This document shows positions 49,663 through 56,982 of a stretch of DNA of 64,000 bases, piece after piece; positions within the stretch are counted from its first letter, which is position 1; each line of letters starts with the position of its first letter. The translations under genes and the position numbers were made by a program. The DNA lies in contig CANAWG010000004.1 of the NCBI GenBank assembly GCA_947365245.1, forward strand, positions 62,001 to 126,000, read 5' to 3'. The notes under the pieces are model-generated. The model did no database searches and was not told the origin of the DNA. It worked only from the letters and a program-made list of their open reading frames with translations. The stretch is from an uncultured Oscillibacter sp. (GTDB lineage Bacteria > Bacillota > Clostridia > Oscillospirales > Oscillospiraceae).

Positions 49663-49676
49663 TGTGCTCGGATTTT

Positions 49677-49738
49677 ATGCCTCCGCCAAGGCCTTGGCGG
49701 AGGCGATGGCCTTTTCCTGGGCGGCGGGGGACAGTCCC
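49677..49738 (-). repeat. Second copy of an EF-G C-terminal coding tail
   Basis: Reads GLSPAAQEKAIASAKALAEA and then a stop (TAA). It matches the last residues of the intact neighbouring gene (PPAAQEKAIAEAKALAEG) with about 85 percent base identity and an unbroken frame. It is cut off from the gene by a 128-bp non-coding element. Confidence 0.85.
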
Positions 49739-49866
49739 TCCCCGCAAAAGCGGCGCTTTTGCGGGGGCCCCTGATTAAACTCAAATCGTCCGAAGTGAAT
49801 TCGGCCGATTTCAAGATTTTTGCTGCGCAAAAATGCTTGGACGCCGGACTTCCGGCGAGGGCCGCC
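49739..49866 (-). mobile_element. Four-hairpin element A at the 3' end of the EF-G paralogue
   Basis: Non-coding. Plus-strand hairpins: CCCCGCAAAAG/CTTTTGCGGGG (49740-49766), AAATCG-T-CCGAA/TTCGG-C-CGATTT (49783-49811), TTTTTGC/GCAAAAA (49817-49833) and CGCCGG/CCGGCG (49842-49857). Linkers ACTCAAA, TTTCAAG, GCTTGGACGC and GCGAGG are shared with element B at 55325. The stems differ in sequence between A and B but keep pairing. Calling it mobile is an inference from the repeated insertion next to duplicated gene ends. Confidence 0.6.
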
Positions 49867-51936
49867 TCAGCCCTCCGCCAGCGCCTTGGCCTCGGCGATG
49901 GCCTTTTCCTGGGCCGCCGGCGGGCAGTCCTCGTAGCGGACGAAGTGGAACGTGAAGCTGCCCCGGCTCTGGGTCATGGCCCGGAGGTCGATGGCGTAGC
50001 TGCCCATCTCGCCCATGGGGACCTCGGCGGAGATCACCTGGTCGCCGTCGCCGGTGGGGTCCATGCCCATGACGCGGCCCCGGCGCTTGTTGAGGTCGCC
50101 GATGACGTCGCCCATGTAGCTGTCGGGCACGGTGACCTTCAGCTCGCCCACGGGCTCCAGCAGCACGGGGTTGGCCTCCGGCAATGCGGCCTTGTAGGCC
50201 AGCTGGGCGGCGGTCTTAAAGGCGATTTCAGAGGAGTCCACCGGGTGGTAGGAGCCGTCATACAGCACGGCCTTCAGGTTCACCACGGGATAGCCCGCCA
50301 GGGGCCCGTGGACGCAGGCCTCCCGCAGGCCCTTTTCCACGGCGGGGAAGTAGTTCTTGGGCACGGAGCCGCCGAAGACCTCCTCGGCAAACTCCATCTC
50401 CTCCACCTCCGGGTTGGGCTCGAAGCGGATCCACACGTCGCCGAACTGGCCGCTGCCGCCGGTCTGCTTCTTGTGGCGGCCCTGCTTCTGGACGGTCTTG
50501 CGGATCTTCTCCCGGTAGGGGACCCGGGTGGGCTTCAGCTCCGCCTCCACGTTGAAGCGGGTTTTGAGCTTGCTCACCAGCACGTCCACCTGCATATCGC
50601 CGGCGCCGGAGAGGACCATCTGGTGGGTCTCGGCGTTATTGACCATGGAGAAAGAGGGATCCTCCTCGTTGAGACGCACCAACCCCTGGGCGATCTTGTC
50701 CTCCTGGCCCCGGGTCTTGGGGACGATGGCCACGGAGTAGCAGGGCTCGGCAAAGGGGATGGGCTTGAGGGAGACCACCTTGCGCTCGTCGCACAGGGTA
50801 TCGCCGGTCTTGATGTCCATCTTGGCGATGGCGCCGATGTCGCCGCAGCTGAGCTCCTTGACCTCGGTGGTCTTCTTGCCCCGCAGAGTGTACAGGCGGC
50901 CCAGCTTTACTTTCTCGCCGGTGCGGGCGTTGACCATGGGCAGGTCCGGGGTGATGGCGCCGGAGAGCACCTTGACGAAAGAGTACTTGCCGTACTGGTC
51001 GGAGATGGTCTTAAAGACAAAGGCCGTGGGCACGCCGCCGGGGGAGACCACGAACTCCTCGGTCTCACCGTCGGACTTGGTGGCCTTGTGGTAGTTGCCC
51101 TCGGCGGGATTGGGCAGCAGGTCCACGATGTTGTCCATCAGCATGAGGCTGCCCAGGCAGCTGACGGCGGAGCCGCACAGCACGGGGAACAGGCTCAGCT
51201 CCCGCACGCCCTGGCGCAGGCCCTGGATCATCTCGGCGTAGGTGAAGTCCTCGCCGCCGAAGAACTTGTCCATAAACTCCTCGGAGGTCTCCGCCACAGA
51301 CTCCTTGAGGGCGTCGTTGAACTCGGTGACCACGGCCTCCTTGTCGGCGGGGAGCTCGATCTCCGCCCGCTTGAGATTCTGCATCTCATAAGCCCGCTTA
51401 TTGAGCACGTCGATGATGCCGGTGACTTTCTTTGCGCCGTCCCAGATGGGCACCACAATGGGGGCGATCTTCTTGCCGAAGCGCTCCCGGAGGGCGTCAA
51501 AGGTGGCGTTGTAATCGCTGTTTTCCTCGTCGGTCTTGGAGATATAGATGAAGCGGGGCATATTCCGCTCCTCGCAGTATTTCCACGCCTTCTCCAACCC
51601 CACGGAGATCCCGTCCTTGGCGGAGCAGACGATGATGGCGGCGTCGGCGGCCCGCAGGGCCTCCATCACCTCGCCGGCGAAGTCAAAGGCGCCGGGGGTG
51701 TCCAGCACGTTGATGCGGCAGCCCTTGTACTCCAGGGGGGCCACGGCGGTGGACAGGGAGATCTGGCGCTTGGTCTCCTCCGGGTCGTAGTCGCAGACGG
51801 TGTTGCCGTCGACGGCGCGGCCCATGCGGTCGATGGCGCCGGTCATGTAGAGCAGGCTCTCGGCCAGGGCGGTCTTGCCGCTGCCGCTGTGGCCCAGCAG
51901 GCAGACGTTGCGGATGTTCTGTACAGAATAGCTCAT
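49867..51936 (-). CDS. Elongation factor G-like GTPase (paralogue)
   Basis: 689 residues, EF-G length and domain order. G1 GHSGSGKTALAES near residue 12, G3 DTPGAFDFAGEV, G4 reads YISKTDEE where EF-G has NKMD, then domains II-V with SGAGDMQVDVLVSKLK, GGSGQFGDVWIRFEP and the C-terminal GDVIGDLNKRRGRVMGMD. The altered G4 and G2 regions mark it as the EF-G2-like paralogue, whose role is not settled (possible ribosome rescue or stress factor). Start ATG 51936 with AAGGAG 11 nt upstream. Its last 20 codons are duplicated downstream. Confidence 0.9.
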   Translation of the reverse strand: MSYSVQNIRNVCLLGHSGSGKTALAESLLYMTGAIDRMGRAVDGNTVCDYDPEETKRQISLSTAVAPLEYKGCRINVLDTPGAFDFAGEVMEALRAADAAIIVCSAKDGISVGLEKAWKYCEERNMPRFIYISKTDEENSDYNATFDALRERFGKKIAPIVVPIWDGAKKVTGIIDVLNKRAYEMQNLKRAEIELPADKEAVVTEFNDALKESVAETSEEFMDKFFGGEDFTYAEMIQGLRQGVRELSLFPVLCGSAVSCLGSLMLMDNIVDLLPNPAEGNYHKATKSDGETEEFVVSPGGVPTAFVFKTISDQYGKYSFVKVLSGAITPDLPMVNARTGEKVKLGRLYTLRGKKTTEVKELSCGDIGAIAKMDIKTGDTLCDERKVVSLKPIPFAEPCYSVAIVPKTRGQEDKIAQGLVRLNEEDPSFSMVNNAETHQMVLSGAGDMQVDVLVSKLKTRFNVEAELKPTRVPYREKIRKTVQKQGRHKKQTGGSGQFGDVWIRFEPNPEVEEMEFAEEVFGGSVPKNYFPAVEKGLREACVHGPLAGYPVVNLKAVLYDGSYHPVDSSEIAFKTAAQLAYKAALPEANPVLLEPVGELKVTVPDSYMGDVIGDLNKRRGRVMGMDPTGDGDQVISAEVPMGEMGSYAIDLRAMTQSRGSFTFHFVRYEDCPPAAQEKAIAEAKALAEG

Positions 51937-52042
51937 AGTCGTTTCCACTCCTTATGTTTGTTGCTCTCCCCCGGCTCCACGCGGCGGCGCGGAGCCGCAG
52001 CAAGTCCCATCCGGCGGTTTGCCGGGATCGCTCAATATATGA

Positions 52043-52071
52043 ATTATACAACATCCCCCCGGGTAATACAA
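52043..52071 (-). promoter_or_regulatory. Sigma-A promoter of the EF-G paralogue
   Basis: Minus-strand TTGTAT, 17-bp spacer, TATAAT. With the scfA promoter it accounts for the 309-bp divergent gap 51937-52245; nothing else was seen there. Confidence 0.8.
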
Positions 52072-52151
52072 CAAAAATTTTGGCACTTTTCCCATTTTCG
52101 GCGGGAGGGAGAAAAAGAGGGGCTGTTTTTGGCGGCGTTTGCGCCTTGACC

Positions 52152-52180
52152 TTGACTTTTTTGCCGGTGTATGGTATAAT
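52152..52180 (+). promoter_or_regulatory. Sigma-A promoter of scfA
   Basis: TTGACT, 17-bp spacer, TATAAT. Confidence 0.88.
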
Positions 52181-52245
52181 TTTCTCCGCTGAAAATCCGC
52201 CGCTCCCCGGGGCGGCGGCAAAAACCACAAGAGGGGAGAATCACC

Positions 52246-52386
52246 ATGGAGAGAATCAAGACCCTTGAGACCCGCAGCCTCTGCGAGAGCGCCAAGAAGG
52301 GCGGCTGCGGCGAGTGCCAGACTTCCTGCCAGTCCGCCTGCAAGACCAGCTGCGGCGTGGCCAACCAGAAGTGCGAGAACAAGTGA
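52246..52386 (+). CDS. scfA: SCIFF peptide precursor (six cysteines in forty-five)
   Basis: 46 residues, ribosomally made peptide modified by a radical SAM enzyme into a thioether (ranthipeptide/sactipeptide-type) product. The family pattern is plain: IKTLETRSLCESAKKGGCGE, then CQTSCQSACKTSCG and a final cysteine at 43. Cysteines are 13, 21, 24, 28, 32, 36 and 43. In the studied homologues the link joins Cys 32 to Thr 37; here residue 37 is Gly. Start ATG 52246 behind GAGGGGAG. The maturase gene follows after a hairpin. Confidence 0.95.
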   Translation: MERIKTLETRSLCESAKKGGCGECQTSCQSACKTSCGVANQKCENK

Positions 52387-52397
52387 GTGCCCACTGA

Positions 52398-52423
52398 AAG
52401 CGCCGCCGGGAGGCGGCGCTTTT
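52398..52423 (+). terminator. Leaky terminator between scfA and scfB
   Basis: Perfect 10-bp stem AAGCGCCGCC / GGCGGCGCTT, loop GGGA, followed by only TTC. Probably lets a minority of transcripts reach scfB so that peptide exceeds enzyme. Confidence 0.7.
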
Positions 52424-52463
52424 CTTCGCGGCAGGGTCCGTTCAACGACATACGGAGGTTTCT

Positions 52464-53843
52464 ATGGTACATCAATATCAGCTGGGCGGCTATAATATCG
52501 TCCTGGACACCTGCTCCGGCGCCATCCACGTGGCGGACGAGGTGGCTTATGACGTTATCGCCCTCTTTGAAAGCAGCAGTCCGGAGGAGATCACCGCGGC
52601 CCTGCTGGAAAAATACGCGGACAGGCCCGACGTGACGGCGGAGGAGCTGCGCTCGTGCATGGAGGACGTGCAGAGCCTGAAAGACGACGGCAGGCTCTTC
52701 ACGCCGGACACTTTCGCCCCGCTGGCCGGGACGTTCAAGGAGCGCTCCGGGGACGTGGTGAAGGCGTTGTGCCTCCACGTGGCCCACACCTGCAACTTAA
52801 ACTGCGCCTACTGCTTTGCAAGCCAGGGCCGCTACAGCGGGGACCGGGCCCTCATGAGCTTCGAGACCGGAAAGCGGGCGCTGGACTTTTTGATTGAACA
52901 CTCCGGCAGCCGCCGCAACCTGGAGGTGGACTTCTTTGGCGGCGAGCCGCTGATGAACTGGGACGTGGTGAAACGGCTGGTGGCCTATGCCCGCGGTGTG
53001 GAGGGCGCAGCCGGCAAGCACTTCCGCTTTACCCTCACCACCAACGGCCTTTTGATCGACGACGAGGTCATTGACTTCGCCAACCGGGAGATGGACAACG
53101 TGGTGCTGTCCCTGGACGGGCGGAGAGAGATCCACGACGCCCTCCGGGTGGACTGCGCCGGAAGCGGCAGCTATGACCGCATTGTCCCCAAGCTCCAGAA
53201 GCTGGTGAAGGCCAGGGGAGGGAAGAACTACTACATCCGGGGCACGTTCACCCACCGGAATCCCGACTTTACGAAAGACCTTTTCCACATGGCGGACGAT
53301 CTGGGCTTCACCGAGCTCTCCATGGAGCCGGTGGTCTGCGCCCCGGGGGACCCGGCGGCGCTGACGGCGGAAGATCTGGAGATCGTCAAGGAGCAGTATG
53401 AGATCCTGGCGAAAGATATGCTCCGGCGGAGAAAAGAGGGCAGGCCCATCACGTTCTACCACTACATGCTGGATTTGGAGAACGGGCCCTGCGTCTACAA
53501 GCGCATCTCCGGCTGCGGCTCCGGCACGGAGTACATGGCCGTCACCCCCTGGGGGGACCTGTACCCCTGCCACCAGTTCGTGGGGGAGGAGCGCTGGAAG
53601 CTGGGGAACCTCTGGGACGGCGTGACGAATACGGCGCTGCGGGAGGAATTCCGCGCCTGCAACGCCTACGCCCGGGCGGAGTGCGCCGACTGCTGGGCCA
53701 AGCTCTACTGCTCCGGCGGCTGCGCCGCCAATGCCTATCACGCCTCCGGCTCCATTCGGGGGGTGTACGAGGCGGGGTGCGAGCTGTTCCGCAAGCGGAT
53801 CGAGTGCGCCATCATGCTGAAAGCCGCAGAGGCGGACTTGTGA
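52464..53843 (+). CDS. scfB: SCIFF radical SAM maturase
   Basis: 459 residues. N-terminal peptide-recognition part, radical SAM cluster CNLNCAYC (Cys 110, 114, 117), GGEPLMNWDVV, and a C-terminal SPASM domain with GPCVYKRISGCGSGTEY, PWGDLYPCHQFVG and CADCWAKLYCSGGCAANAY for two auxiliary 4Fe-4S clusters. Forms thioether cross-links in ScfA. Start ATG 52464 behind ACGGAGG. The stop overlaps the next start (TGATG), so the decarboxylase gene is coupled to it. Confidence 0.96.
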   Translation: MVHQYQLGGYNIVLDTCSGAIHVADEVAYDVIALFESSSPEEITAALLEKYADRPDVTAEELRSCMEDVQSLKDDGRLFTPDTFAPLAGTFKERSGDVVKALCLHVAHTCNLNCAYCFASQGRYSGDRALMSFETGKRALDFLIEHSGSRRNLEVDFFGGEPLMNWDVVKRLVAYARGVEGAAGKHFRFTLTTNGLLIDDEVIDFANREMDNVVLSLDGRREIHDALRVDCAGSGSYDRIVPKLQKLVKARGGKNYYIRGTFTHRNPDFTKDLFHMADDLGFTELSMEPVVCAPGDPAALTAEDLEIVKEQYEILAKDMLRRRKEGRPITFYHYMLDLENGPCVYKRISGCGSGTEYMAVTPWGDLYPCHQFVGEERWKLGNLWDGVTNTALREEFRACNAYARAECADCWAKLYCSGGCAANAYHASGSIRGVYEAGCELFRKRIECAIMLKAAEADL

Positions 53844-55183
53844 TGGAGACGCCCATCGCGGACTTCGTCCGAAGCTACGTCAATAGCGGCGTCAGCCGCC
53901 TCCATATGCCGGGCCACAAGGGCGCGGGGCCCCTGGGCTGCGAGCCCTGGGATATCACCGAGGTGGCCGGGGCGGACGAGCTGTACGGCGCCTCCGGCAT
54001 CATCGCAAAGAGTGAGCAAAACGCCGCCGCCCTCTTCGGCTCCGGGGCCACTTTCTACTCCACGGAGGGCTCCAGCCAGTGCGTCAAGGCCATGCTGTGC
54101 CTGGCCCTCCAAAACCGCTCCGCCGGAGCGCCGTCGGTGATCGCGGCCGCCCGGAACATCCACAAGTCTTTTGTCCACGCCGCCGCCCTGCTGGATTTCC
54201 AGCCGGTGTGGCTGTGGCCGGAGGGGGGGACCGATTCCCTCTGCGCCTGCCCCGTGACGGCGGAGGGCCTGGAGCGGACGCTGGACACCCTGGACGCGCC
54301 CCCCGCCGCCGTCTATGTCACAAGCCCCGACTACCTGGGGAACCTCCAGGACATTCCAGCCCTGGCGGCGGTGTGCCATGCCCATGGGACGCCGCTGCTG
54401 GTGGACAACGCCCACGGGGCCTATCTCCGCTTTCTGAAGCCCTCCCGGCACCCCCTGGACCTGGGGGCGGACCTGGTCTGCGACTCCGCCCACAAGACGC
54501 TGCCGGTGCTCACCGGCGGAGCGTACCTGCACGTCTCCAAAACCGCTCCGGCGGCTTTCCGGGAGCGGGCGAGAGCGGCCCTGGCCCTGTTCGGCTCCAC
54601 CAGCCCGTCGTATCTGACCCTGACGTCCTTGGATCTGTGCAATGCTTACCTCTCCGGGGAGGGGGGAGGCCGCATCCGCTCCGCCGCCGCCCGCCTGGCG
54701 GCGCTGAAAGAGGCGCTGTCTCGTCAGGGCTGGACCCTGGCGGGGGAGGAGCCCCTAAAGCTCACCCTGGACGCCGCCGCCCGGGGCTGGGACGGTCTGG
54801 AGCTGGCGGCGCATCTGCGGAATGGGAACGTGGAGCCGGAATACGCGGACCGGAATTTCTGCGTGCTGATGGTCTCCGGATCCTCGGATGAAAAGGACGT
54901 TTCCCTTTTGGAGGACAGCCTGGGTCGTGCCGCTGGAAAGCCGCCCCTGTTCCGCTCCGCTCTGCCCCTGGCCAGGGGGGAGCAGGTGCTGTCCGTTCGG
55001 GAAGCCCTCTTCGCCCCCCAGGAGACCGTCCCGGCGGAGGAGAGCCTGGGCCGCGTCTGCGGCGCCCCAACGGTGAGCTGTCCCCCGGCGATTCCCGTGG
55101 CCGTCTCCGGGGAGCGGATCGGGCCGGAGGCGGTGGCCCTGTTCCGCCGCTGCGGTGTGGAGACCGTGGATGTGGTGCGATAA
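53843..55183 (+). CDS. Orn/Lys/Arg decarboxylase-family PLP enzyme
   Basis: 446 residues, the short YaaO-like form of the fold type I decarboxylases. Substrate/PLP motifs: SRLHMPGHKGAGPLG at the start, EGSSQCVKAMLCL, VYVTSPDYLGNL, LVDNAHGAYLRF and the PLP lysine 218 in CDSAHKTLPVLTGGAYL. Most homologues make polyamine precursors by decarboxylating arginine, lysine or ornithine; which one is not decidable here. It starts inside the scfB stop codon without a strong ribosome binding site of its own. Confidence 0.88.
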   Translation: METPIADFVRSYVNSGVSRLHMPGHKGAGPLGCEPWDITEVAGADELYGASGIIAKSEQNAAALFGSGATFYSTEGSSQCVKAMLCLALQNRSAGAPSVIAAARNIHKSFVHAAALLDFQPVWLWPEGGTDSLCACPVTAEGLERTLDTLDAPPAAVYVTSPDYLGNLQDIPALAAVCHAHGTPLLVDNAHGAYLRFLKPSRHPLDLGADLVCDSAHKTLPVLTGGAYLHVSKTAPAAFRERARAALALFGSTSPSYLTLTSLDLCNAYLSGEGGGRIRSAAARLAALKEALSRQGWTLAGEEPLKLTLDAAARGWDGLELAAHLRNGNVEPEYADRNFCVLMVSGSSDEKDVSLLEDSLGRAAGKPPLFRSALPLARGEQVLSVREALFAPQETVPAEESLGRVCGAPTVSCPPAIPVAVSGERIGPEAVALFRRCGVETVDVVR

Positions 55184-55217
55184 TCGGCAGGCCCCAGGCC
55201 AGGCTGTGAGAGAAAGA

Positions 55218-55252
55218 GAGGCGCCGCCCCTTTTGGGGCGGCGCCTCTTTTT
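55218..55252 (+). terminator. Terminator of the scfA-scfB-decarboxylase operon
   Basis: Perfect 13-bp stem GAGGCGCCGCCCC / GGGGCGGCGCCTC, loop TTTT, then TTTTTCTT. Confidence 0.95.
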
Positions 55253-55263
55253 CTTATCTTTGG

Positions 55264-55324
55264 GTCAGCTTCTCTGATTGCCGCCGATGGTGGTATCTTT
55301 CAGCAGGACGTCGTGGGCGCCGCC
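55264..55324 (-). repeat. Second copy of the guaB C-terminal coding tail
   Basis: Reads [18 protein letters not shown] then stop, identical in protein to the end of the intact guaB gene, with five base differences that are all synonymous third positions. Separated from guaB by element B. Confidence 0.92.
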
Positions 55325-55467
55325 GTACCCCGTGGGACCTGTCCCGCGGGGACCCCGCATAGGACTCAAACGGCCGGGCAAAGCCCGGCCGTTTCAAGGT
55401 TTTGCCGCGCAAACCGCTTGGACGCGCTGATGCGCGAGGTGGAAAGCGGCGCTGCGCAGAAAGCAGG
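55325..55467 (-). mobile_element. Four-hairpin element B at the 3' end of guaB
   Basis: Non-coding. Plus-strand hairpins in the same order as element A: CCCCG-T-GGGAC/GTCCC-G-CGGGG (55328-55351), AAACGGCCGGGC/GCCCGGCCGTTT (55368-55394), TTTGC/GCAAA (55401-55413) and CGCGC/GCGCG (55423-55436). Shared linkers ACTCAAA, TTTCAAG, GCTTGGACGC and GCGAGG. About 26 extra bases lie between the last linker and the guaB stop. The element name and mobility are inferred. Confidence 0.6.
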
Positions 55468-56982
55468 TCAGCTTCTTTGGTTGCCGCCGATGGTGGTGTC
55501 TTTCAGCAGGACATCATGGGCGCCGCCCTCCACGATGGAGACGGAGCTCACCAGTGTCAGCTTGGCCTTCTCCCGGAGCTCCGGGATGGTCAGCGCGCCG
55601 CAGTTGCACATGGTGGAGCGGATCTTGGAAAGGGTGGTGGCCATGCCGTCGGAGAGGGCCCCGGCGTAGGGGACGTAGGAGTCCACCCCCTCCTCAAAGG
55701 AGAGCTTGGAGGCACCGCCCAGGTCGTAGCGCTGCCAGTTCCGGGCCCGGGCGCTGCCCTCGCCCCAGTACTCTTTCATATAGCTGCCGCCGATCATAAT
55801 CTTGCTGGTGGGGGACTCGTCAAACCGGGAGAAATACCGGCCCAGCATGCAGAAGTCCGCCCCCATGGCCAGGGCCAACGTGATGTGGTAGTCCTGGACG
55901 ATGCCGCCGTCGGCGCAGATGGGGACGTAGACGCCGGTCTCCTCAAAATAGCGGTCCCGCTCCGCCGCCACGTCGATCACCGCCGTGGCCTGGCCCCGGC
56001 CGATGCCCTTGGTCTCCCGGGTGATGCAGATGGAGCCGCCGCCGATGCCGATCTTCACAAAGTCCGCCCCGGCCTGGGCCAGAAAGCGGAAGCCCTCGCC
56101 GTCCACCACGTTGCCCGCGCCCACTTTCACCGTGTCGCCGTAGCGCTCCCGGATCCATTGCAGCGTCCGGAGCTGCCACTCGCTGTAGCCCTCGGAGGAG
56201 TCGATCACCAGCACGTCCACGCCGGCGTCCACCAGGGCGGGAACTCTTTGCTCGTAGTCCCGGGTGTTGATGCCGGCCCCCACCACATAGCGCTTCTGGC
56301 CGTCCAGCAGCTCCAGGGGGTTGCCCTTGTGGGAGTCGTAGTCCTTGCGGAAGACGAAGCTCTTGAGCCGCCGGTCCGATGAGACAATGGGCAGGGCGTT
56401 GAGCTTGCGGTCCCATATAATGTCGTTGGCCTCCTTGAGGCTGGTGCCCTCCGGGGCCCAGATTAGCTTTTCAAAGGGGGTCATGAAATCCGCCACCTTC
56501 GCGGCGGCGTCCATGCGGCTCACCCGGTAATCCCGGCTGGTGACCAGGCCCACCAGCTTTCCCTCCGCCGTGCCGTCCTCGGTGACGGGCATGGTGGAGT
56601 GGCCGGTGCGCGCTTTCAGGGCCAGCACGTCCGCCAGCGTGTCGTCGGGGCGGAGGTTGGAGTCGCTGGAGACGAAGCCCGCCTTGTAGTTTTTCACCTT
56701 GCGGACCATCTCCGCCTGCTGCTCCACCGGCTGGGAGACGTAGATAAAGGCGATGCCGCCCTCTTTTGCCAGGGCGATGCCCATCTTCTCGCCGGAGACG
56801 GCCTGCATGACGGCGGAGACCATGGGCACGTTCATGGTCAGGGGGCACTCCTCGCCCCGCTTGAACTTCACCACCGGGGTCTTCAGGGAGACGTTGGCGG
56901 GGACGCACTCCGAGGAGGAGTAGCCGGGCACCAGCAGGTATTCGGAGAACGTGCGGGAGGGTTCGGAGAAAAAGTAGGCCAT
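55468..56982 (-). CDS. guaB: IMP dehydrogenase
   Basis: Oxidises IMP to XMP with NAD, the committed step to GMP. 504 residues. CBS pair at about 95-215, then the barrel with [27 protein letters not shown], the catalytic Cys 319 in [33 protein letters not shown], and the active-site flap [11 protein letters not shown] followed by [10 protein letters not shown]. Start ATG 56982 with GAGGTG 4 nt upstream. Lies 42 bp after a GNAT gene and is probably co-transcribed. Its last 18 codons are duplicated downstream. Confidence 0.95.

What the first reader, a model, noticed from the sequence alone, without database searches (positions are those of the whole stretch)
49739..55467. Elements A and B are one family with covarying hairpins: a possible undescribed 3'-end-targeting element
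A (49739-49866) and B (55325-55467) share four hairpins in the same order and the linkers ACTCAAA, TTTCAAG, GCTTGGACGC and GCGAGG, while stem sequences differ but stay paired (for example AAATCG..CGATTT against AAACGG..CCGTTT). Paired substitutions argue for selection on structure, in RNA or in single-stranded DNA. There is no coding capacity, so movement would need a protein in trans (a recombinase, a reverse transcriptase, or a transposase acting on structured single-stranded DNA).
Basis: partly seen in the sequence, partly recalled or inferred. Interest (0 to 1): 0.9.

Follow-up and report, generated by a model that had tools for sequence, protein, structure and literature searches.

The report
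Guide-carrying mobile elements at gene ends
Gut bacteria related to Oscillibacter carry small non-coding DNA units inside the ends of essential genes; each unit typically holds a short guide complementary to its own insertion site and is flanked by a second copy of the gene end, which suggests an undescribed guided mobile element whose enzyme is still unknown.

Summary
Hairpins H1 and H4 covary. Layout on the scaffold strand: gene body | s | gene end T1 | spacer | 13-14 nt guide | hairpin scaffold | second gene end T' | native flank. Direct repeats flank 115 of 129 copies versus 4 of 329 control windows. New here: the segment before the scaffold is complementary to insertion site s, about -6 to +7, and follows its own host's target where two species differ (107 own, 22 other, 5 neither). 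Insertions lie at 3' ends (scaffold sense) and 5' ends (scaffold antisense). T1/T' differences are mostly synonymous (148 versus 26 codons). Empty sites exist in relatives; occupancy is patchy. Reverse transcriptase, IS110 and TnpB do not track the element; Y1 transposases do weakly. No Rfam match at gathering score. Best reading: a non-coding, guide-directed mobile element acting through an unknown enzyme. Structure and guide are well supported; mobility and chemistry are inferred.

The parts
49867..51948 (-). Host gene of A: elongation factor G family protein; its last 63 nt (49867-49929) are the T1 copy
   Evidence: ORF; NCBIfam NF009381 elongation factor G E 3.4e-261; T1 coordinates
49856..49866 (-). 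Guide (LE) of A: 9 of 11 nt complementary to the junction 49929|49930 (weak; not among the 54 loci of the footprint). Its 3' edge against the scaffold is approximate
   Evidence: score 8
49738..49858 (-). Scaffold of A (hairpins H1-H4)
   Evidence: R2 match E 2.2e-20 (A is one of the 55 sequences R2 was built from); fold
49812..49839 (-). H2 hairpin of A (CAAGC..GCA..CTTG)
49675..49736 (-). T' of A: second EF-G tail, followed by a terminator-like hairpin (by eye)
   Evidence: one-base length difference from T1
55468..56982 (-). Host gene of B: IMP dehydrogenase; its last 60 nt (55468-55527) are the T1 copy
   Evidence: ORF; NCBIfam NF005493 IMP dehydrogenase E 1.3e-285
55439..55452 (-). Guide (LE) of B: 12 of 14 nt complementary to the junction 55527|55528 (positions -6 to +8)
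   Evidence: score 12, G-U type mismatches neither counted nor penalised; score 10 with mismatches penalised
55326..55439 (-). Scaffold of B (hairpins H1-H4)
   Evidence: R2 match E 4.0e-17 (B is one of the 55 sequences R2 was built from); fold
55395..55420 (-). H2 hairpin of B
55265..55324 (-). T' of B: second IMPDH tail, 5 synonymous and 0 nonsynonymous codon differences from T1, followed by the native 3' flank

Best explanation
A non-coding mobile element whose insertions are directed by a built-in guide. Shown by comparison: (1) the typical inserted unit is a copy of the gene end (T1), a spacer, a 13-14 nt guide, and a scaffold of hairpins. (2) It lies at one defined point s inside the coding sequence near a gene end. 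(3) The guide is complementary to the intact site across s. (4) The displaced gene end T' and its native flank follow the scaffold. (5) The same site is empty in related species (guaB). Inferred: the scaffold strand acts as RNA or single-stranded DNA. The guide pairs with the strand carrying x|y and places the scaffold's 3' end at s, joining it to T'. The gene's 5' part is then extended over the same stretch, giving T1, so the host gene stays intact and the insertion is silent. Only insertions whose copy reaches past the stop codon or the ribosome-binding site survive. An enzyme in trans does the chemistry. Because target complementarity is maintained or rebuilt, the element can home repeatedly into the same conserved sites.
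For: Family and covariation. Flanking repeats in 115 of 129 copies versus 4 of 329 control windows. Guide: score at least 10 in 50 of 72 loci versus 5.3% of mismatched locus pairs and 8 of 72 on the same strand. Footprint in 54 of 72 loci (those scoring at least 9, register chosen for best match): pairing 57-98% at -6..+7, 87-98% at -3..+5, roughly 25-30% outside. Test without knowing s: 55 of 120 own-upstream scores at least 10.5 versus 2.0% (other loci) and 0 of 105 (own downstream). Geometry: the guide ends 18-21 nt (24 loci) or 31-37 nt (24 loci) before H2, of 54. Covariation of guide with own target: 107 own, 22 other, 5 neither, over 37 same-target pairs. One polarity: the coding frame runs from the gene body on the guide side into T1 in 71 of 71 loci (58 sense, 13 antisense), and T' keeps T1's stop position in 53 of 57 sense loci. 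Empty guaB sites in relatives and 4 changes of occupancy on the gene tree, 3 forced by well-supported branches. Targets include IF-2, LepA, MutS, MutL, UvrB, Era, HisS, ArgG. AP018533.1: of 20 model matches, 12 have repeats (score 25 or more) and 11 a guide (score 10 or more).
Against: No enzyme found. Movement was never observed; the evidence is comparative. T1 and T' within a genome are closer (0.038) than across genomes (0.133 and 0.145), and T1 copies do not cluster more than T' copies across species (p 0.09, 48 pairs). So either the duplication is remade locally or recombination homogenises the two. The T1/T' match usually ends at the stop codon (42 of 57 within 5 nt), which a random second cut would not give without later erosion. 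In G042 2 of 30 inspected copies have a gene-type repeat and guide scores are not above control. 14 of 129 copies have no repeat of score 25. A's own guide is weak. How a guide is rewritten for a new target is unexplained.
Confidence: 0.5

Rival explanations
1. Old insertions kept and spread by ordinary homologous recombination. T1 and T' are homogenised by slippage or exchange with empty alleles, and the guide complementarity is kept by template switching between inverted repeats rather than by use as a guide.
For: Tandem arrays with a period of about 190-215 nt exist. Within-genome T1/T' identity exceeds between-genome identity. The scaffold clusters by target gene (32 of 41 nearest neighbours). 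Some species pairs look like shared old insertions (L104/L070, L062/L045).
Against: Template switching should extend inverted repeats outward, but the footprint ends near -6 and +7. The two arms are separated by most of T1 (33-92 nt long). It does not explain how the scaffold reached many different genes with one polarity.
Confidence: 0.22
2. The stretch T1-guide-scaffold is a very small self-splicing intron: the guide is an internal guide sequence, s the 5' splice site, and splicing joins the gene body to T'.
For: The guide order matches P1 plus P10 of group I introns (P10 recalled). T' keeps its protein sequence and stop (148 synonymous versus 26 nonsynonymous codon differences at 57 sense loci; same stop in 53 of 57).
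Against: 13 of 71 insertions are antisense to the gene. The guide pairs with T1 rather than T' where they differ (18 versus 2, 8 neither). [quoted passage not shown] No Rfam match at gathering score in the window. The scaffold is about 120 nt; group I ribozymes are 200-500 (PMC4227781, passages).
Confidence: 0.08
3. Element moved as single-stranded DNA by a Y1 HUH transposase (IS200/IS605 TnpA or a REP-associated RAYT), the guide being an extended version of the IS200 left guide.
For: The guide lies at the foot of a hairpin, as in IS200/IS605 (recalled). H2 often carries a GNA triloop closed by GC, a stable DNA hairpin (recalled). Y1 matches (E 0.001 or better) in 8 of 10 element-rich versus 7 of 27 other same-genus genomes, Fisher p 0.005, one of four families tested.
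Against: No Y1 match in element-rich G008 (95% complete), G023 or G042. The association falls to p 0.08 at completeness 85% or more. By eye the ten proteins looked at are of two unlike groups, IS200-type and RAYT-like (labels recalled), and the RAYT-like type also occurs in element-free G015 and G034. Known IS200 guides are about 4 nt and fixed (recalled).
Confidence: 0.08
4. Retroelement mobilised by a reverse transcriptase through target-primed synthesis.
For: RNA-like structure; the product geometry fits target-primed synthesis.
Against: RVT_1 not found in 6 of 11 element-rich genomes, including G018 (95% complete) and G042 (98%); no association in the genus, 5 of 10 versus 11 of 27.
Confidence: 0.04
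5. Guide RNA of a trans-acting nuclease (IscB, TnpB or Cas9-like) that cuts empty alleles so that the unit is copied in by repair.
For: A 5' guide followed by a scaffold, with s about 6 nt from the guide's 3' end.
Against: No motif beside the guide beyond codon periodicity. The occupied allele keeps an intact target and the guide fits it better than T'. PF07282 over cut-off in 2 of 8 element-rich and 6 of 19 other same-genus genomes searched. IscB and Cas9 were not searched.
Confidence: 0.04
6. Ordinary palindromic repeats (terminators or REP-like) that sit after genes.
For: Hairpin-rich and adjacent to stop codons; most inspected G042 copies look like this (28 of 30).
Against: Repeats, guide, single polarity and 5'-end antisense cases.
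Confidence: 0.04

Closest known systems
Group I intron internal guide sequence (P1/P10) and IStrons
   Same: A short internal segment complementary to sequence at the insertion point; insertion silent to the host; homing into cognate sites (passages of PMC4227781; P10 recalled)
   Different: No intron core recognised, no U at -1, antisense insertions, a duplicated gene end, guide pairs the intact contiguous site
IS110/IS1111 bridge RNA or seekRNA
   Same: Target choice by base pairing with a non-coding guide (PMC11208160, start of abstract in a listing; guide lengths recalled)
   Different: One contiguous guide on one strand, guide differs from locus to locus, no DEDD recombinase tracking it
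REP/REPIN and MITE families with trans-acting transposase
   Same: Short, non-coding, hairpin-rich, many copies, no ORF (PMC3116915, start of abstract in listings; PMC10969869, term search only)
   Different: Target-specific guide, gene-end duplication, insertion inside coding sequence at both gene ends with fixed polarity
IS200/IS605 ends (TnpA guides)
   Same: Guide at the hairpin foot pairs with the cleavage site (recalled)
   Different: 13-14 nt and locus-specific instead of about 4 nt and fixed (recalled); Y1 not found in some element-rich genomes
Integrative elements that use gene 3' ends as attachment sites
   Same: Gene end supplied again so that the gene stays whole; conserved genes chosen (recalled)
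   Different: No integrase in the unit, unit of about 200 nt, many unrelated targets, 5' ends too

Membership tests
Group I intron | Internal guide pairing across the insertion point | tested here: met
   footprint -6..+7 in 54 of 72 loci
Group I intron | U at position -1 (U-G wobble) | tested here: not met
   T at -1 in 5 of 53 loci
Group I intron | Catalytic core recognised by covariance models | tested here: not met
   no Rfam match at gathering score in the window; in six loci no intron family among the 9 matches at E<=1
Group I intron | Same strand as the host gene | tested here: not met
   13 of 71 antisense
IS110 bridge-RNA system | DEDD recombinase in element-bearing genomes | tested here: not met
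   PF01548 over cut-off in 4 of 8 element-rich and 5 of 19 other same-genus genomes searched, and not in G042
IS200/IS605 or RAYT/REP | Y1 HUH transposase in element-bearing genomes | tested here: inconclusive
   8 of 10 element-rich same-genus genomes; not in G008, G023 or G042; many matches partial
Retroelement | Reverse transcriptase in element-bearing genomes | tested here: not met
   RVT_1 not found in 6 of 11 element-rich genomes
TnpB-type RNA-guided nuclease element | Nuclease in element-bearing genomes | tested here: not met
   PF07282 over cut-off in 2 of 8 element-rich same-genus genomes searched
TnpB/IscB-type RNA-guided nuclease element | TAM beside the target | tested here: not met
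   no motif next to the guide footprint in 53 loci
IscB-type RNA-guided nuclease element | IscB protein in element-bearing genomes | not tested
   no IscB family was searched
MITE | Fixed terminal inverted repeats shared with an autonomous parent | tested here: inconclusive
   the left edge is a guide that differs between loci; no search for fixed terminal repeats or for an autonomous parent was run genome-wide
REP/REPIN | Intergenic palindrome without target-derived flanks (definition recalled) | tested here: not met
   115 of 129 copies flanked by repeats; gene ends in the 70 loci of usual geometry. G042's copies mostly do fit
Any active mobile element | Transposition or excision observed | not testable with these tools
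   only empty and occupied orthologous sites compared

The most novel reading that the evidence does not exclude
A self-contained RNA- or ssDNA-guided non-coding mobile element that rebuilds its guide from every new target and leaves a working copy of the gene end on the guide side. It would be a natural guided insertion system with built-in host rescue, driven by an enzyme family not yet linked to any guide.
Probability: 0.35. Interest if true: 0.95.

Novelty: categorically new. Interest (0 to 1): 0.85.

Why it matters
If true, it adds a kind of mobile DNA in which a non-coding unit of about 200 nt finds its site by base pairing and leaves the host gene intact by duplicating its end. That makes guided insertion without double-strand-break repair directly testable in common gut bacteria, and the unknown trans enzyme would be a new tool. 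Even without mobility, many housekeeping genes (IF-2, LepA, EF-G, MutS, MutL, UvrB, IMPDH) carry duplicated ends and a covarying guide that need an explanation.

Tried and rejected
Phage and plasmid collections: the EF-G match in MT836870.1 is a chromosomal fragment without the element. MT838853.1 does carry one copy, in lepA. A two-sequence covariance model (R1) was built and not used because MAFFT misaligned A and B. Rfam: nothing at gathering score in the window; in six loci 9 matches at E<=1, each below its family's gathering score. TAM search on the guide strand: only codon periodicity, plus G at -2 in 38 of 53. Spacer versus T1 end complementarity: no signal, 4.76 versus 4.81. T'-to-T1 substitution spectrum at sense loci: ordinary, 150 transitions of 213, no sign of an error-prone polymerase. 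A wide repeat search around 16 loci with no or an odd nearby T' gave no distant repeat pair pointing to a larger unit (weak pairs of 34 and 22 nt at L025 and L084; ORFs were not examined); five of them (L027, L060, L077, L099, L115) still have an upstream complement to the guide. First codon-difference pass was dropped because open-frame length picked wrong frames in GC-rich DNA; one search uses codon usage. Replication-strand bias in AP018533.1 was not concluded because the origin was not located. Pattern scan of viral contigs gave 17 stretches that were not examined. Papers: nine searches of ten allowed; no listed title or opening of an abstract describes this element, but the listings were partial where many papers matched (12 of 62, 8 of 65, 10 of 284, 8 of 11 and 8 of 12 shown). 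Two papers were opened, by term search only. Subscription papers and preprints are not held.

Rows dropped before counts: of 140 pattern matches, 129 were scored for repeats after removing duplicates and matches with under 60 nt of flank; some of the 115 positives are tandem arrays in which the repeat includes the neighbouring unit. The guide and codon tests used 70 of the 129 (repeat score at least 28, T1 and T' in the usual positions) plus A and B. The footprint used 54 of those 72 (score at least 9). A was dropped from the codon count for its length difference, and L064 for a frame margin under 10. The alignment A3 used 55 of the 72. One search dropped A and any pair with under 30 aligned nt or over 40% difference. 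One search used 120 loci with enough upstream sequence.
Full report
WHAT IS THERE. Both elements lie on the minus strand directly after stop codons: A after an elongation factor G gene, B after IMP dehydrogenase. Beyond each is a second copy of the gene's last 60 or so bases. For B the second copy encodes the same 19 residues and stop with five synonymous differences. For A the second copy has a one-base length difference, so it is not cleanly in frame.

THE FAMILY. Their titles name Flavonifractor, Oscillibacter, Pseudoflavonifractor, Intestinimonas, Dysosmobacter, Galloscillospira and uncultured Oscillospiraceae, or only Clostridia, Clostridiales/Eubacteriales, Firmicutes or 'bacterium'. A covariance model from 55 copies (R2) finds 7 copies in the window's genome and 21, 23, 35 and 40 in G018, G008, G024 and G013. 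It finds none in 17 of the 37 same-genus genomes and none in 22 of the 23 other genomes of the order that were searched, the exception being G042 (with stricter filters). Hairpins H1 and H4 vary strongly in sequence while staying paired (two of its five measures do not exceed shuffles, see the observation check). H2 was fixed by the search pattern in that set; among copies found by the model its stem does vary.

LAYOUT. In 115 of 129 copies a direct repeat flanks the scaffold, against 4 of 329 windows placed 1.5-2.5 kb away. Some of these are tandem arrays of the whole unit. In the 70 loci of usual geometry, plus A and B, the repeat is a gene end. By codon usage, 58 of 71 loci are 3' ends with the scaffold in gene sense and 13 are 5' ends with the scaffold antisense. 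In all 71 the frame runs open from the gene body on the guide side into T1 (at least 60 codons or to the end of the locus); T' keeps the same stop position in 53 of 57 sense loci, so no mirrored arrangement was seen among them. At sense loci the T1/T' match stops within 5 nt of the stop codon in 42 of 57; at antisense loci it runs 11-16 nt past the start codon in 7 of 13, about to the ribosome-binding site. In L212 and L177 it runs to the end of a terminator-like hairpin (by eye).

THE GUIDE. The segment just 5' of the scaffold is reverse-complementary to the insertion site s, measured on the intact gene copy. Scores of at least 10 occur in 50 of 72 loci, 5.3% of mismatched pairs and 8 of 72 on the wrong strand. 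Averaged over the 54 loci scoring at least 9, pairing is 87-98% from -3 to +5, 57-78% at -6 to -4 and +6 to +7, and roughly 25-30% beyond, with single positions up to 44%. The register was chosen for best match, which raises the core; that the core sits at the same place relative to s is not built in. A test that does not use s gives 55 of 120 against 2.0% and 0 of 105. The guide ends 18-21 or 31-37 nt before H2 in 48 of 54, with or without an extra hairpin. Where two species share a target gene but differ in the footprint, the guide follows its own host 107 times, the other 22, neither 5 (37 pairs). In lepA all three differences between L047 and L083, which are synonymous, are followed. Cells count pairs of loci, so related pairs are not independent. 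Where T1 and T' differ inside the footprint, the guide matches T1 18 times, T' twice, neither 8 times.

HISTORY. The guaB site was read by eye in relatives: occupied in G000, G029, G008 and G013 (G004 shows both tails in the search table), without the element in others, including G000's sister G006, where only about 105 nt after the stop are available. The label needs 4 changes on the gene tree of 31 rows, at least 3 forced by well-supported branches; the bootstrap had not settled. Scaffolds cluster by target gene across species (32 of 41 nearest neighbours), so lineages stay with a target. T1 and T' in one genome differ by 0.038 per site against 0.133 (T1-T1) and 0.145 (T'-T') between genomes (48 pairs), and T1 is not more shared across species than T' (p 0.09). 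T1/T' codon differences are 148 synonymous to 26 nonsynonymous at 57 sense loci and 17 to 8 at 13 antisense loci, although about 77% of random changes would be nonsynonymous. T' therefore does not look like freely drifting debris. Either insertions are young and local, or T' is repeatedly refreshed from functional alleles, or T' is sometimes used. I could not decide between these.

WHAT MOVES IT. Four enzyme families were counted: RVT_1 and Y1 in 60 genomes, IS110 and TnpB in 43 of these. Reverse transcriptase, IS110 and TnpB show no association. Y1 transposases show 8 of 10 element-rich against 7 of 27 other same-genus genomes (p 0.005, four tests, no correction for kinship; p 0.08 at completeness 85% or more). 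They were not found in G008, G023 and G042, and the ten proteins looked at are of unlike types, several partial. Many assemblies are incomplete. Serine, tyrosine and DDE recombinases, IscB and Cas9 were not tested.

MECHANISM. The anatomy fits a guide that pairs with the target strand across s, the scaffold's 3' end joining the downstream part, and the upstream end being extended over the same stretch. That yields the duplicated gene end and the observed polarity. The guide resembles the P1/P10 internal guide of group I introns in position and length (PMC4227781, passages; P10 recalled), but membership fails on the -1 base, the core, and strand. How the guide becomes complementary to a new target is the main gap; copying from the target or selection after drift are both open.

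AGAINST MY READING. G042 has 89 model matches, yet only 2 of 30 inspected copies (L187, L264; L258 is the neighbour in L264's array) carry the gene-end repeat, and guide scores there are not above control. In the window's genome 6 of 7 copies have the repeat, one (L203) has none. A's guide is only 9 of 11. In AP018533.1, titled a complete genome, 8 of 20 matches lack a repeat of score 25 and 9 lack a guide of score 10. Nothing here shows movement.

Noticed in passing
G042 loci L187, L239-L267: 89 scaffold-like copies in a 1.9 Mb genome of another family; of 30 inspected, 28 lack the gene-end repeat, and several show a different H2 stem with a GNA-type loop; a possible ancestral or guide-less branch.
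   Followed up: partly
L009, L016, L049, L058, L059, L063; G008:C17:27546-28073: Tandem arrays of the whole unit (period about 190-215 nt), up to three copies.
   Followed up: partly
L222 (G004:C63), L221 (G013:C42), L038, L061, L086: Arrays of the scaffold alone with a period near 122-140 nt, and several copies at contig ends, suggesting collapsed longer arrays in the assemblies.
   Followed up: no
L093, L095, L107, L111: Copies next to tRNA-like genes; L093 has a 95/95 repeat that appears to include a tRNA part and a terminator. Read by eye, not run through ARAGORN.
   Followed up: no
L113, L047, L053, L030: LepA and MutL are each hit at both ends, by separate units; other targets include MutS (L021) and UvrB (L033), so DNA repair genes recur.
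   Followed up: partly
L038, L042, L093, L095, L119: A variant with a different last hairpin (contains GAAACCCAAA or a similar string in place of the usual H4).
   Followed up: no
L288 (G000:C14:74673): The window genome's only Y1 transposase match is a remnant that reads PDQIRLL where related copies read PDHIHML.
   Followed up: yes
L003 (MT836870.1), L004 (MT838853.1): GenBank records labelled Bacteriophage sp. that hold ordinary bacterial chromosomal sequence (EF-G gene; lepA start).
   Followed up: partly
L126-L142: 17 viral-contig stretches match the loose H2 pattern; not examined.
   Followed up: no
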